This document shows positions 44,099 to 64,000 of a stretch of 64,000 nt of DNA, in pieces. The DNA is from Cyanodermella asteris (Eukaryota; Ascomycota; Lecanoromycetes; Ostropales; Stictidaceae). Every line of letters starts with the position of its first letter. Position 1 is the first letter of the stretch. The stretch is taken from NCBI GenBank assembly GCA_900618795.1, contig UYJD01000012.1, positions 805,521 to 869,520 of the forward strand, read 5' to 3'. Made by a program: the position numbers and the translations under genes. A model generated the notes under the pieces. The model was given only the letters and a program-made list of their open reading frames with translations, made no database searches and had not been told where the DNA came from.

Positions 44099-45860
44099 TC
44101 ACAAGTCCCGAATCAGATACCCTTTGTTCTGTAATCGTTGGAAAACTCGTTTCGGATCGTACTTTGCAGCAACCTTCTTGATCGTCTGCACGTTGTCGGC
44201 GCCAAAGCTCTGCAGCACCTTCTGGTTAGTACCCGCCGTGTTCATGAACAGATACGGCAGATCGGCGCCGTGCGCTCTGGCAGACGCGAGCACCTTGTCC
44301 GTAATGCGATCCGAGACCGCGTAGATCTGGTCGTCGATTGAAGCGTCGGTCCAAGTGATGTACCACTCGTGCCCTGTCCCGCCGTCAGCACAACCAATCT
44401 CAAACAACAACCACCACCCCGGAGTCCGGCTTTCAGGCTTCTCCGAGGAGCGTTTCGAACTCACACTGCTGCGGCACCTCCTGCAATCCGAGCAGATTGC
44501 CCTCCGCAACCGCATTGCCCGCCTTGACCGTGCTGACGCCGACGGGCGCAGGAACCCACACGGCGGCGGCGCCCGCGGGCAGCTCGGCGGTCTCGTTCTC
44601 GAAGATCTCGTACGCGTCGACCATGTACGCGGCGTCGACCTTGTTGGTGAAGGTCTCGCCGTACGTGCGGATGCCCTCGGGCGCGAAGTTTGCGGCGGCC
44701 AAGGCGGCGAGGTCGGACAGCGTGCCGTTGCGCGGGGAGACGAGCTGCGTGGAGCCGTTGATGGCGTAGAAGGGAGCGAAGGCCGACGGCTTTGCGGGCA
44801 CGGGCGTCGAGTAGAGCAGGAGGGTCGCGATGACGCCGGAGCCGAGGACAAAGTTGCTGGTGATTGCGGCTTTGGGGTCGAGCTGGCCTTGGGCTTGCCA
44901 GGAGGCGATGGCATTGAGGACCTGGGTCGAGGCGGAGAGGGGGTAGATGATGCCTTCGAAGTAGAATTGGCCGATGGGGATGGTCTTCATTTGGAAGTTG
45001 GTAACCACGCCTGGTAATTTGTGAGATCGGAGGAGAATTGCGCAGTCGTGAAATGCAGATTCTTGCTTACCGAAATTGGTGGCTCCACCGCGAAGACCTT
45101 TGTACAGATCCGCGTTTTGGGACGCAGAGGCGGTGACTACGCGGCCACTGCCAAGCACGACCTCGAAGCTTTTGATATTGTCAAAACCGAGTCCGTACTG
45201 GTTGGCGAAATAGCTCAGACCTCCACCCAGCAGGAAGCCGCCGACGCCGACGATCCCGGCGCGACCGCCTGCCACCGTCAGGTTGAAGGGCTCAAGCGTG
45301 CTATAGACGTTCTGCCACCGGTTGCCGGGACCGATGTCCACCGTCGACTTGTCAGCAGATAAACTGACTCGGTTGAGCCGCTGGAGTGATACGAGGACAC
45401 CATTAGAGCCGATGCCGGCAAATCCCGGAGTCTGCTTGTGGCCTCCGCTCCGGAGGGAGAATGTCGTATTGAGAACATTGAGAATTGCGATGACACGTGC
45501 CACCTCGTTGGTGTTTGCGGGGCTAACGACGCACTGGGCTGGAAGCCAGCATGTTGCGGAGCTGTGATGGCGTGAGAACTGTAGTATTACAGTGGAATGA
45601 AGGGCTACGTACTAATTGTCGTCCAGGATGGAAGTGTAAGCAGCTCCAGCGGAGGGTGAGAGAGTGCTGTTGCCACCGCCAAGTGCCCTCTTCAACACCT
45701 GGCATGTAAAAGAAGCATTGTTCTGTGGTAGGCTCGAGCCACTGGGAAGTGCGGCAGCAATTGCTCGGTCGAGCTGACAAGATGAAAGATCGGGAAACGA
45801 TTGGACGCCGACCGAAAGCGCATAGAGGACAAAAGACCGAACGACGGCGTTCGAGAACAT
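44099..45860 (-). CDS. Secreted BBE-type FAD-linked oxidoreductase
   Basis: I read four exons: 45860-45613, 45561-45071, 45010-44465 and 44373-44099, with introns of 51, 60 and 91 bases (donors GTACGT, GTAAGC, GTGAGT). The product is 519 residues. It starts with a signal peptide (MFSNAVVRSFVLYALSVGVQ). The FAD-binding PCMH domain contains WLPAQCVVSPANT, RSGGH with the likely flavin-linked His124, and GFLLGGGLSYFANQYGLG. The berberine-bridge C-terminus has NTAGTNQKVLQSFGADN and KYDPKRVFQRLQ. It is positioned to be the YanF-like oxidase of the neighbouring meroterpenoid cluster, acting in the endomembrane/secretory space. Confidence 0.9.
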
Positions 45861-46964
45861 GGCTGTTCAAAGTATTTGGGCTCGAAGCAGGGAAATCCGA
45901 ATAATGCGGCTTAGGCCAAGCAGAAAAGGACAGAAGACTGTGCCGGCGCACAGGAGGAACGGAAGGTGCACGAGAAATGAGGAAAAGAGAGCGGCACGTA
46001 GATGGCATTATAGAAACCACAGCCGCAAGGCTCAAGGCCTAGACGGTGATTAAAATTAGAACATCACTGATAGAGACGCGTTGCCTTGACTCGCCCCAGA
46101 GCTAGCCGTTAGAGGAGGCGGAACGGCATACAACGTGTTTCAAAGCCTGAACCATGAAGCTGAGCCACAAGACGATTTGAACACGTGGGACCCATCAGCC
46201 GAGGATGACAAGCTCACTACATTCTGTGATATATGATCTGGAGTTGGAGTGTAGTATTGGAGCAAACGGACCTGGGTGAGAGCTACTTTGACATGTCTAG
46301 TGCGAGCCTGTGAATAAAGCATGGCTGCCACGTTTTCCACGTGAGAGGATCCGCGCACCAAGATGAATAGGGGAATGACAAGGGACCCAAAAACCTTGAT
46401 GCTGGGATTTGCTGTCATGGTCTGACATGTCAAGAATTCTAGCGTGCTTCGAGAGTTGAGCTTCGCCAGAAAGACTTTGGCCCAGGAACGTGTGGCCAAC
46501 ATGCAACTACCGTAATACTGAAGCGAAGACACGTGCAACCAACAGTCAGCCCACGCAATCGTATCGACGCGTTCTCCCAAGTTCATCACGAGAGGAAATT
46601 GAAGCGAAGACCCTTGTCGGCCGAGAGTGGCATCTGACAGGACTTCACTCAAGTGAGGTCGTTCGGGCGAGAGGCGGAGAAACGTCGGCCCGAGAACGAC
46701 GACAATCAACCCTTCTCGTGCCTTTTCACACTCACGCCTCTCTATCTGCCACGAAACTCGGCCCTCGAATATGGTCCTGCGTGGCGAAGCCATTATCTTC
46801 GTGGGGGGCCAATGCCCAGTCCTGTCACCTGATGTTGACATGCCTCCTTATCGGTGTTAATCGTGACCTTCATACCAACCTTGCCTGTTTCCTCTTGGTC
46901 TTGTTTTTGCTGTTGTGGCTTGTTGTTTGTTTTCGCCCCCTTGTTCGCCCTTTGCAGCTATACC
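45861..46964. promoter_or_regulatory. Divergent intergenic region between the FAD oxidase and SDR genes
   Basis: A 1.1-kb region between outward-reading genes holds both promoters. A pyrimidine-rich leader (about 46880-46960) precedes the SDR start. Open frames on both strands here lack any motif. Confidence 0.45.
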
Positions 46965-47949
46965 ATGAGTGCTCAGAAGTCTGTTTTGGTGACTGGCTGT
47001 AGTGCAGGTGGCATAGGCGCAGCAGTCGCCCAGCAATTTGCAGGGGAAGGGAATCTGGTTTTTGTAACTGCGCGCACGCCGTCGCGAGTTCCCCCCGAGC
47101 TCCACAGTCTATCAAATGTAGAGATACTTCTTCTCGACGTGACGGACAAAGACAACATTGCCGAAGCGGCGCGGGTAGTCCGCGAAAAGACTGGCAGCAA
47201 GCTAGACGTGCTCGTCAACAATGCCGGAATGAATTTCACCATGCCCTGCTTGGACTCATCGCTCGAGGACGGCAAGAAGCTTTTCGACACCAATTTCTGG
47301 GGTGTTTTGGCCGTCTGCCAGGCTTTCGCGCCTCTGCTCATACGCGCAAAAGGCGTCATAGTCAATGTCAGCTCGATCACAGGGTATCTGAATACCCCAT
47401 ATATGGGTGAGCCAAGGGTCGCGAACGACCGCAATGCCGACATGGTCTCGTTGGCTCGAAAATACTCACCGTGTCGCCAGGTCTTTACAGCGCTTCGAAA
47501 GCCGCCTTGACGTGCGCTTCCGAGACGTTACGAGTCGAGCTCCAACCGTTTGGCGTAGCCGTTGTCACACTCGTTGCGGGCAATGTGCAGACGGAGTTCT
47601 GGCAGAAGGAACAGACATTTGCCTTACCATCAGACTCCTTGTATCTTCCCATACACGAAACGATTGCCGCTGCTGCCTCTGGCAAGCTCAGCCCTCCAGG
47701 ATCATCCGCAGCCGAGTTTTCCCGCCAGCTTCGGACAACGGCTCTCTCACGGACTGGCGGGCTTGTGTGGAAAGGTGCGATGGCAGGAACGGTGAGACTC
47801 GTGGCGAAGCTCATGCCTACGAGTATGATGGTAAGTATGCTCACGGCAAAAGTTCGTACGAGGCTGACAAGTTTGTTTAGGATCGGGCTTTGTCAGACAA
47901 GCGAGGCCTCGACGTGTTGGCAGAGAAGTTAGCAACTGGGCTGGATTGA
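46965..47949 (+). CDS. Short-chain dehydrogenase, AYR1-like
   Basis: I read three exons: 46965-47406, 47481-47830 and 47881-47949, with introns of 74 and 50 bases (GTGAGC...GCCAG; GTAAGT...TTTAG). The product is 286 residues. The NADP-binding glycine motif is TGCSAGGIG; the others are DVLVNNAG, VNVSSITG and the catalytic YSASK (created by the first splice). The sequence resembles 1-acyldihydroxyacetone-phosphate reductases, which act in lipid synthesis, but many SDRs of this type are recruited to secondary metabolism. It could be a cluster member or a bystander. Confidence 0.88.
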
Positions 47950-62791: not shown

Positions 62792-63259
62792 TGGTATCGA
62801 AGAATTCACGTCAGAATGTGCACGAGGAACGAATGGGTTCTCTCGGCAGAGGCGAAGCTCTGGTCTGGCGGACTGGCAAGCCGAGTTGTGCTCATATTCC
62901 GAAGAGCTCACCATTGATGCTGAAACGCGAATAATCTTCACAAATCTACTATCTAGCCAAACTCTCAATATACAGCGACTAATTGGGCCCTGGCTCGCGT
63001 CATCTCACGATAAGTGCCAAGTCAGAGTGGCAAGGCTCGGCTGAGAGGCCTGCGCCCCAATCTTTGTAGATGCCCTGCTGCGTCTGATTCTTGTATATCT
63101 TATTACGTGACATGTTCATCGGCCGAGATGTAAGAACAATTGACCCCTGTTGAACTAGCCACGAGCTCACACATACTTTAAGAGGCATTTTTATATCACT
63201 CCACTGGGCCGCAGCTATGATGTGAGTCCAATGACGGTTTGCAATCAAAGCGTTTCGAG
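62792..63259. other. Intergenic, promoter of the edge P450
   Basis: No gene is seen in this 468-base spacer between same-strand cluster genes. Confidence 0.45.
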
Positions 63260-64000
63260 ATGTGCCTGATTCTGAGCTTGGTTGCGTTTATTGTTGCTTG
63301 CTTTCTTTATTCCACCTGGTACAAAGATTCTACGTCCCCGAATGGACCTCCACCACTGCCGATCATTGGCAACATTCATCAGATCCCAAAGACGGGGTCT
63401 CATTTCACGTTTACAAAATGGGCAAAGCTCTACGGCGGACTCTTCACATTCAAGATTGGTCCTGCCACCGCGGCCGTGATCACCGACCGCAGATTGGTCA
63501 AGGAACTCATCGACAAACGCAGCGCGATCTACAGCGCACGCCCTGTATCGCATGTCTCTAATCTCATCACCAAGGGCGATCATCTCCTCGTCATGCAGCA
63601 TGGTGATACCTGGAGAAAATTTTGAAAGCTCATTCACCAATACTTCATGGAGTCTATGGTTGAAAAGGAACACATCAGCCTGGTCGAAGCCGAGGAAACA
63701 CAGATGATCAGAGACATGTTGATCCATCCCGAGCAGCACATGCTGCACTCGAAGCGAACAAGCAACAGCATCATAATGAGCCTTCTCTTCGGCATCAGGA
63801 CCGAGTCGTCGCAAACCCCGCACGTGGTCGACCTTTATAGCATCATGGAACGCTGGTCGAAGGTCATGGAACAAGGGGCAACGCCACCTGTTGATATTTT
63901 TCCGATCTTCAAAAGCCTTCCCGAGTCCTGGTTCGGCAATTGGATATCCAGATCCCTGGACGTTGGCCGGGGCATGAAAGCCCTGTATAGCGGTCAACAC
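63260..64000 (+). CDS. Cytochrome P450, N-terminal part, with an in-frame stop; runs off the window
   Basis: The start MCLILSLVAFIVACFLYSTW is a membrane anchor followed by the hinge NGPPPLPIIGNIHQIP. The sequence then follows the m-cresol/aromatic hydroxylase type of P450 (YanC, PatH, PatI): KWAKLYGGLFTFKIG, LITKGDHLLVMQHGDTWRKF. At 63623-63625 there is TGA, after which the same frame continues without a break in similarity (KLIHQYFMESMVEKEHI... SIIMSLLFGIRTES) to the window end. The position would suit Arg, and CGA to TGA is a single transition. No intron signals remove it. The I-helix and heme region lie beyond the window. Confidence 0.82.

What the first reader, a model, noticed from the sequence alone, without database searches (positions are those of the whole stretch)
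44099..64000. Yanuthone/macrophorin-like meroterpenoid cluster, probably in a Dothideomycete
Within 20 kb lie a 6-MSA-type PKS, a 6-MSA decarboxylase-type amidohydrolase, a UbiA prenyltransferase, a BBE-type oxidase, an SDR, two P450s and a wax-synthase-type acyltransferase. That set corresponds to YanA, YanB, YanG, YanF, YanD, YanH/YanC and YanI of the published yanuthone D pathway in Aspergillus niger. The YanI-type acyltransferase plus 6-MSAS plus decarboxylase combination is distinctive. The predicted route is 6-MSA, m-cresol, toluquinol, prenylated toluquinol, epoxyquinone and an O-acylated product. If the host is outside the Eurotiomycetes, this is a little-described occurrence, and added genes (AYR1-like SDR, AtuA, small unknown gene) could give a new product.
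Basis: partly seen in the sequence, partly recalled or inferred. Interest (0 to 1): 0.85.

Follow-up and report, generated by a model that had tools for sequence, protein, structure and literature searches.

The report
Yanuthone-type fungal gene cluster
A fungal chromosome carries a side-by-side set of enzyme genes of the kind that builds yanuthone-like compounds (a small aromatic ring joined to a terpene tail); this kind of cluster is already known from several fungal groups, and one of its two oxygenase genes is interrupted by a stop codon here.

Summary
Between 44099 and 64000 lie a 1772-aa intronless KS-AT-DH-KR-ACP polyketide synthase, a UbiA prenyltransferase, an ACMSD-type decarboxylase, a BBE-type flavoenzyme, two SDRs, an MBOAT_2 acyltransferase and two P450s. 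The set fits a 6-MSA-derived, prenylated, O-acylated meroterpenoid pathway of yanuthone type; UbiA and MBOAT argue against patulin- or mellein-type clusters.

Corrections: (1) the second P450 (63260-64000, cut by the window end) has an in-frame TGA at 63623-63625; (2) such clusters outside the Eurotiomycetes are already in print: Xylaria (PMC8403587), Arthrobotrys (PMC9780802), Aureobasidium, a dothideomycete (PMC11905612); (3) the host class could not be tested; (4) AtuA lies outside the stated coordinates (41861-43852).

No yan or mac sequences could be reached, so the gene-by-gene assignment rests on domain family and position, not orthology. No YanE-, YanR- or MacJ-like gene was recognised in the window. 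A CGGCCG site in six of seven promoter regions is a weak, post hoc hint of co-regulation.

Verdict: a real cluster, new member of a known kind, modest interest.

The parts
41861..43852 (+). AtuA-family protein (630 aa, 3 exons) at the left flank; membership of the cluster uncertain
   Evidence: PF07287 9.8e-158 and PF23544 6.1e-15; gene model
44099..45860 (-). BBE-type FAD-linked oxidase (519 aa, 4 exons), YanF-like by family
   Evidence: PF01565 9.8e-27; PDB matches include 9p1o, EncM and SorD; SGGH present, GxCxxVG absent
46965..47949 (+). classical SDR1 (286 aa, 3 exons), divergent from the BBE gene
   Evidence: PF00106 1.4e-41; NNAG and YxxSK present, TGxxxGxG not found
48155..53473 (-). 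partially reducing PKS, KS-AT-DH-KR-ACP, 1772 aa, one exon: 6-MSAS type
   Evidence: Pfam domains; EAHATST, AEQMDPQ, HPLHGSEIVP, GMDSV; near-full-length relatives at 37.7-38.8% in actinobacteria
54643..55698 (+). UbiA prenyltransferase (332 aa, 2 exons), YanG-like by family; divergent from the PKS gene
   Evidence: PF01040 2e-37; NDLCDRNLD and DVFYATQDAADD
56089..57125 (+). SDR2 (327 aa, 2 exons), YanD-like by family
   Evidence: PF00106 1.2e-23; TGGNAGMG and YGDSK
57386..59155 (-). cytochrome P450 a (515 aa, 3 exons), intact
   Evidence: PF00067 4.1e-55; AGNDTT, ESLR, FSKGTRSCIG
59496..60999 (+). MBOAT_2 wax-synthase-type O-acyltransferase (464 aa, 3 exons), YanI-like by family
   Evidence: PF13813 1.8e-21; RRCWGKYWH and SGLIH; no PDB match at E<=1
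61779..62791 (+). Amidohydro_2 decarboxylase (320 aa, 2 exons), YanB-like by family
   Evidence: PF04909 7.4e-28; 2dvt gamma-resorcylate decarboxylase 1.7e-20, H157 and D273 align with its H164 and D287 by my count
63260..64000 (+). cytochrome P450 b, runs off the window; in-frame TGA at 63623-63625
   Evidence: 63260-63622 PF00067 6.6e-12, profile 1-97; 63626-64000 profile 114-205, E 0.001, below Pfam cut-off
41766..41771 (.). CGGCCG, candidate regulator site, 95 bases before the AtuA start
   Evidence: weak and post hoc
54488..54493 (.). CGGCCG, candidate regulator site, 155 bases before the UbiA start (another at 54029; one at 46618 between BBE and SDR1)
   Evidence: weak and post hoc
59355..59360 (.). 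CGGCCG, candidate regulator site, 141 bases before the MBOAT start
   Evidence: weak and post hoc
61647..61652 (.). CGGCCG, candidate regulator site, 132 bases before the decarboxylase start
   Evidence: weak and post hoc
63120..63125 (.). CGGCCG, candidate regulator site, 140 bases before the P450b start
   Evidence: weak and post hoc

Best explanation
A yanuthone-type biosynthetic cluster in a filamentous ascomycete. The PKS makes 6-MSA; the amidohydrolase decarboxylates it to m-cresol; a P450 hydroxylates this to toluquinol; the UbiA enzyme attaches a polyprenyl (probably farnesyl) chain; the BBE oxidase and an SDR convert the ring to an epoxyquinone/epoxycyclohexenone; the second P450 hydroxylates further; the MBOAT enzyme O-acylates the new hydroxyl. 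Shown: enzyme families, motifs and adjacency. Inferred: every substrate and the step order. The interrupted P450b implies that one hydroxylation is lost or altered in this strain; if P450b is the m-cresol hydroxylase (not tested), the pathway would stall at m-cresol, which is what accumulates in the artB deletion of Duddingtonia flagrans.
For: Domain set and motifs. The PKS has both peptides I recall as the LC3/LC5c primer sites; PMC2636887 says these primers preferentially bind 6-MSAS-type KS domains (passages). Of 79 bacterial loci kept by a pattern-based scan, I compared the longest ORF of seven: four actinobacterial ones (L001, L002, L003, L005) align in one stretch at 37.7-38.8% and 1088-1141 bits, the other three reach 377-648 bits, as that paper's phylogeny predicts. 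The decarboxylase keeps residues aligned to metal ligands of gamma-resorcylate decarboxylase (ligand roles recalled). UbiA lies beside the PKS, as PMC9780802 describes for Yan and Mac. D. flagrans: artB deletion accumulates m-cresol, artC deletion 6-MSA (PMC8443565, passages). CGGCCG in 6 of 7 promoter regions (7 of 27 window sites in 7.9% of the bases); 0.1% of 20,000 random placements hit as many regions, uncorrected for having picked this motif.
Against: No yan/mac protein could be compared. [quoted passage not shown] AEQMDPQ is not specific: six of the seven bacterial ORFs have it. Two of the three weaker bacterial ORFs also align over nearly the full length, at 29-30%. The SDR2 promoter lacks CGGCCG, and 13 spacings and 64 palindromes were looked at. 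No YanE- or YanR-like gene recognised. P450b is interrupted.
Confidence: 0.77

Rival explanations
1. A 6-MSA cluster leading to a non-prenylated product (patulin, terreic acid or aculinic acid type), with UbiA and MBOAT only neighbours by chance.
For: PKS, decarboxylase, P450s and BBE are shared with such clusters; the Xylaria VDL4 paper lists BBE, P450, DUF, LigW-type decarboxylase and MFS genes beside 6-MSA PKS genes, also in Penicillium and Macrophomina phaseolina (PMC13293291, passages).
Against: UbiA is divergent from the PKS gene and MBOAT lies between P450a and the decarboxylase; these two families are not part of patulin or terreic acid clusters as I recall them.
Confidence: 0.08
2. 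The PKS makes mellein or another dihydroisocoumarin, not 6-MSA, so the decarboxylase and UbiA act on a different phenol.
For: Mellein synthase SACE5532 of S. erythraea is also a partially reducing single-module PKS, and a Parastagonospora nodorum PKS makes mellein (PMC7277180, passages).
Against: The neighbouring ACMSD-type decarboxylase and UbiA are expected for 6-MSA to m-cresol to toluquinol chemistry. PKS architecture and peptides do not discriminate.
Confidence: 0.08
3. A decaying cluster (compatible with the best explanation): once a yanuthone-type pathway, now losing function, with the TGA in P450b as the visible lesion.
For: In-frame TGA with the frame open on both sides. Signs of degradation of the yanuthone cluster are reported in Penicillium expansum and P. 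digitatum (PMC4700700, passages).
Against: The eight other gene models within 44099-62791 are open throughout. A sequencing error is possible.
Confidence: 0.35

Closest known systems
yan cluster of Aspergillus niger (yanuthone D)
   Same: Same enzyme families: 6-MSAS-type PKS, decarboxylase, UbiA, BBE-type oxidase, SDR, two P450s, O-acyltransferase (yan gene letters and roles recalled from Holm et al. 2014, not held)
   Different: Different gene order by PMC9780802's description; no YanE or YanR recognised in the window; extra SDR1 (and AtuA at the flank); P450b interrupted
mac cluster of Penicillium (macrophorins)
   Same: Described as highly identical to yan, 11 genes macA-J and macR in P. 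rubens (PMC7806857, passages)
   Different: No candidate for the MacJ terpene cyclase recognised in the window
Xylaria hypoxylon yan-like cluster (PMC8403587, passages)
   Same: All genes known to take part in yanuthone biosynthesis conserved, outside Eurotiomycetes
   Different: That one adds a terpene cyclase, an oxidoreductase and a P450; here an SDR and possibly AtuA
Arthrobotrys/Duddingtonia SEC (arthrosporol) clusters
   Same: 6-MSA PKS, m-cresol intermediate, prenyltransferase in A. oligospora
   Different: Different organisation; an acyltransferase was not mentioned in the passages read
Aureobasidium pullulans NRRL 62031 cluster (PMC11905612, passages)
   Same: Dothideomycete (class recalled) cluster with 50% antiSMASH similarity to yanuthone D
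   Different: Reported with a transporter gene; gene sequences not compared here

Membership tests
yan/mac-type 6-MSA meroterpenoid cluster | Partially reducing PKS of 6-MSAS type | tested here: met
   KS-AT-DH-KR-ACP, no ER or methyltransferase match; EAHATST and AEQMDPQ, the second not specific; actinobacterial relatives. Product not tested
yan/mac-type 6-MSA meroterpenoid cluster | 6-MSA decarboxylase | tested here: met
   Family level only: Amidohydro_2 with gamma-resorcylate and ACMSD decarboxylase matches and aligned metal ligands
yan/mac-type 6-MSA meroterpenoid cluster | UbiA prenyltransferase | tested here: met
   PF01040 with both Asp-rich motifs; chain-length specificity not tested
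yan/mac-type 6-MSA meroterpenoid cluster | Two functional P450s (YanC, YanH) | tested here: inconclusive
   P450a intact; P450b has an in-frame TGA and runs off the window; which one is YanC-like not testable
yan/mac-type 6-MSA meroterpenoid cluster | BBE-type oxidase and SDR (YanF, YanD) | tested here: met
   Family level: PF01565 and PF00106
yan/mac-type 6-MSA meroterpenoid cluster | O-acyltransferase (YanI) | tested here: met
   Family level: PF13813, motifs
yan/mac-type 6-MSA meroterpenoid cluster | Regulator YanR and YanE | tested here: inconclusive
   No Zn2Cys6 pattern in six unspliced frames of the window, which would miss a spliced one; the genes may lie right of 64000. YanE was not searched for by sequence
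yan/mac-type 6-MSA meroterpenoid cluster | Orthology of each gene to yan/mac by sequence | not testable with these tools
   No fungal genome or yan/mac sequences reachable
macrophorin (mac) subtype | MacJ integral-membrane terpene cyclase | tested here: inconclusive
   None among the ten gene models; 21 of 27 leftover ORFs searched, no Pfam match above cut-off; right side not visible
patulin-type 6-MSA cluster | Non-prenylated product, no UbiA or MBOAT (recalled) | tested here: not met
   UbiA and MBOAT_2 lie within the gene block

The most novel reading that the evidence does not exclude
A rearranged yanuthone-type cluster in which loss of one P450 plus an added SDR (and perhaps a co-regulated AtuA) redirects the pathway to a different acylated prenyl-phenol or prenyl-toluquinol, so the strain makes a product not made by yan, mac or arthrosporol clusters.
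Probability: 0.12. Interest if true: 0.5.

Novelty: new member of a known kind. Interest (0 to 1): 0.3.

Why it matters
It adds a rearranged example to a widely scattered family of 6-MSA meroterpenoid clusters, whose products include antimicrobial yanuthones and phytotoxic macrophorins, and gives a testable case of pathway change by P450 interruption. It is not a new kind of system.

Tried and rejected
Own genome: none held, so host class, paralogues and the sequence to the right could not be examined. tRNA (ARAGORN, bacterial code) and Rfam scans of the window: nothing.

Shared promoter motifs: from 25,715 features collected in five core promoters, the best spaced triplet has a chance of about 1e-4 by my estimate, what so many tries would give; no shuffle control was run there. 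CGGCCG I first passed over; on checking, it occurs in 6 of 7 promoter regions (not SDR2), 7 of 27 window sites. In 20,000 random placements 0.2% had 7 or more sites and 0.1% hit 6 or more regions; other palindromes (ACTAGT, ATGCAT, ACATGT) are more enriched by ratio but hit 3, 3 and 4 regions. After 13 spacings or 64 palindromes this is borderline; kept as a lead, not as proof.

KS-only structure search: top-ranked 7zma (535.6 bits) was considered as a specific relative and rejected, because two stretches of that chain match, so its score is a sum. The first fungal chain, psoA, is at row 31 (283 bits), LovB 271, CTB1 230; CurL heads the single-stretch rows with 345. This fits the 6-MSAS type but does not separate 6-MSA from mellein synthases. 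The C-terminal half gave mainly bacterial modular PKSs at the top; its DH region matches 7vwk, named only 'Polyketide synthase'. I thought SACE5532 might be a 6-MSAS reference; PMC7277180 shows it makes mellein.

AT-rich island 35-40 kb: of 20 ORFs of at least 60 aa between 34.6 and 41.8 kb, 10 went to Pfam, six of them inside 35-40 kb; none above cut-off. No repeats of 30 bases or more in 34.5-41 kb. RIP indices mixed (36-40 kb: TA/AT 1.05, CA+TG over AC+GT 1.24). Origin left open.

Starship cargo: rejected for this cluster. The DUF3435 gene reads leftward, and core genes (Vps26, Sld3, ESCRT-II) lie between it and the cluster.

Bacterial counterparts: in the 79 loci (3.8 to 27.6 kb each), no tblastn match at E up to 1e-4 to UbiA, decarboxylase, MBOAT or BBE; three loci hold a P450a match; SDR matches were not printed.

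Structure prediction was not used; with single sequences it would not separate the rivals.
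Full report
WHAT IS THERE. I built spliced gene models with a small codon-usage and splice-site program, adjusted some by eye (UbiA, SDR2, PKS start) and checked them by translation and Pfam. From left to right: AtuA (41861-43852 +), BBE-type oxidase (44099-45860 -), SDR1 (46965-47949 +), PKS (48155-53473 -), UbiA (54643-55698 +), SDR2 (56089-57125 +), P450a (57386-59155 -), MBOAT_2 acyltransferase (59496-60999 +), Amidohydro_2 decarboxylase (61779-62791 +) and P450b (63260 to the window end, +). 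The eight models between 44099 and 62791 each have a single, terminal stop.

THE PKS. It is 1772 aa in one exon with KS, AT, DH_N, KR and PP-binding matches and no ER or methyltransferase match. It contains AEQMDPQ and EAHATST, which I recall as the peptides behind primers LC3 and LC5c. PMC2636887 (passages) says that these primers preferentially bind 6-MSAS-type KS domains, that the fungal 6-MSAS clade is closer to bacterial than to other fungal PKSs, that introns are rare in it, and that it occurs in Dothideomycetes (Cochliobolus, Phaeosphaeria). A pattern-based scan of bacterial and archaeal genomes kept 79 loci. I compared the longest plus-strand ORF of seven of them: four actinobacterial ones (L001, L002, L003 Streptomyces; L005 Promicromonospora) align in one stretch over nearly the whole PKS at 37.7-38.8% and 1088-1141 bits; the other three (L006, L007, L004) reach 377, 648 and 600 bits for their best stretch, two of these (L007, L004) also over nearly the full length at 29-30%. 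None of the seven has EAHATST and six have EAHGTGT, but six also have AEQMDPQ, so that peptide is not specific (and it was part of one of the scan's patterns). Summed over all pieces, several loci such as L010 and L006 score higher than L001, I presume because several modules match. With the KS alone, the first 30 rows of solved structures are bacterial by name and the fungal psoA comes at row 31. This supports the 6-MSAS type; it does not prove the product, since mellein synthases are also partially reducing PKSs (PMC7277180, passages).

THE OTHER ENZYMES. The decarboxylase matches 2f6k (a metal-dependent hydrolase, 5e-37) and gamma-resorcylate decarboxylase 2dvt (1.7e-20); by my count its H157 and D273 align with H164 and D287 of 2dvt, recalled as metal ligands. 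UbiA has NDLCDRNLD, whose first codon is split by the intron, and DVFYATQDAADD; its only PDB match at E up to 0.001 is 4od4. P450a has AGNDTT, ESLR and FSKGTRSCIG; the MBOAT protein has RRCWGKYWH and SGLIH and no PDB match at E up to 1. The BBE protein matches EncM and SorD among others and lacks GxCxxVG. SDR1 lacks a strict TGxxxGxG but has NNAG and YxxSK; its likeness to AYR1 was not tested.

THE INTERRUPTED P450. ORFs 63221-63625 and 63626-64000 are in one frame, parted by TGA at 63623-63625. The first part matches the P450 profile at positions 1-97 (6.6e-12); the second at 114-205, but only at E 0.001, below Pfam's cut-off, and it was not listed at the default threshold. So the gene is a P450 with a stop in its early part, unless this is a sequencing error. 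The rest of the gene is not in the window.

REGULATION. CGGCCG occurs in 6 of 7 promoter regions, the AtuA and BBE/SDR1 ones included and SDR2 not; five sites lie 95, 155, 141, 132 and 140 bases before the starts of AtuA, UbiA, MBOAT, decarboxylase and P450b. Random placement reaches this number of regions in 0.1% of trials. The motif was picked after looking at many, so this is a lead for co-regulation and for AtuA as a member, no more.

HOW IT PROBABLY WORKS. 6-MSA, m-cresol, toluquinol, prenyl-toluquinol, epoxycyclohexenone, O-acylated product, by analogy with yanuthone D (roles recalled from Holm et al. 2014, which is not held). Support for the first steps comes from Duddingtonia flagrans, where artC deletion accumulates 6-MSA and artB deletion m-cresol (PMC8443565, passages; the passages do not say what enzymes ArtB and ArtC are). 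Every substrate here is inferred. Which P450 acts on m-cresol could not be tested.

IS IT NEW. Yan-type clusters are in print for Aspergillus and Penicillium (PMC6298953, PMC4700700, PMC7806857; passages), Xylaria hypoxylon (PMC8403587, passages), Arthrobotrys oligospora (PMC9780802, passages and section 3) and the dothideomycete Aureobasidium pullulans NRRL 62031 at 50% antiSMASH similarity (PMC11905612, passages). A 6-MSA PKS with some of the same neighbours is named for Macrophomina phaseolina (PMC13293291, passages). PMC9780802 ties macrophorins to the fungus Macrophoma (that it is a dothideomycete is recalled). The listings I saw from searches (25 of 45 papers shown, 10 of 11) gave no title pointing to a fuller dothideomycete cluster; most subscription papers are not in the library. 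I file it as a new member of a known kind. Gene order differs from Yan and Mac as PMC9780802 describes them.

HOST. No genome is held. Introns, core eukaryotic genes (Vps26, Sld3, ESCRT-II) and a DUF3435 recombinase, the captain family of Starships of the Pezizomycotina (PMC12134995, abstract start, passages), point to a filamentous ascomycete. Dothideomycetes is possible and untested.

LIMITS. No yan or mac sequence was compared; there are no expression or metabolite data; the window ends inside P450b.

Noticed in passing
7248-10884 (-): DUF3435 tyrosine recombinase (PF11917, 2.8e-61 for the ORF 8255-9892; model), the Starship-captain family; it reads leftward, so an element would be expected to extend left of about 10.9 kb, away from the cluster. 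It could equally be a solo recombinase.
   Followed up: partly
35000-40000: AT-rich island (GC about 0.35) between core genes and the cluster; six ORFs inside it tested without a Pfam match above cut-off, no repeats of 30 bases, mixed RIP indices.
   Followed up: partly
63623-63625: In-frame TGA inside the second P450 gene, possibly a lesion or a sequencing error.
   Followed up: partly
41766, 46618, 54029, 54488, 59355, 61647, 63120: CGGCCG sites in 6 of 7 promoter regions of the cluster and its AtuA flank, five of them 95-155 bases before a start codon.
   Followed up: partly
12731-34521: GH28 polygalacturonase, Vps26, Sld3, ESCRT-II subunit, GST and an alpha/beta hydrolase among others between the recombinase and the AT-rich island.
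   Followed up: no
2371-3780 (+) and 4833-6039 (-): DUF6829 protein and a PigL_N-type protein left of the DUF3435 gene; possible cargo if an element exists.
   Followed up: no
L001, L002, L003, L005: Streptomyces and Promicromonospora PKSs, 37.7-38.8% identical to the fungal PKS over nearly its full length.
   Followed up: partly
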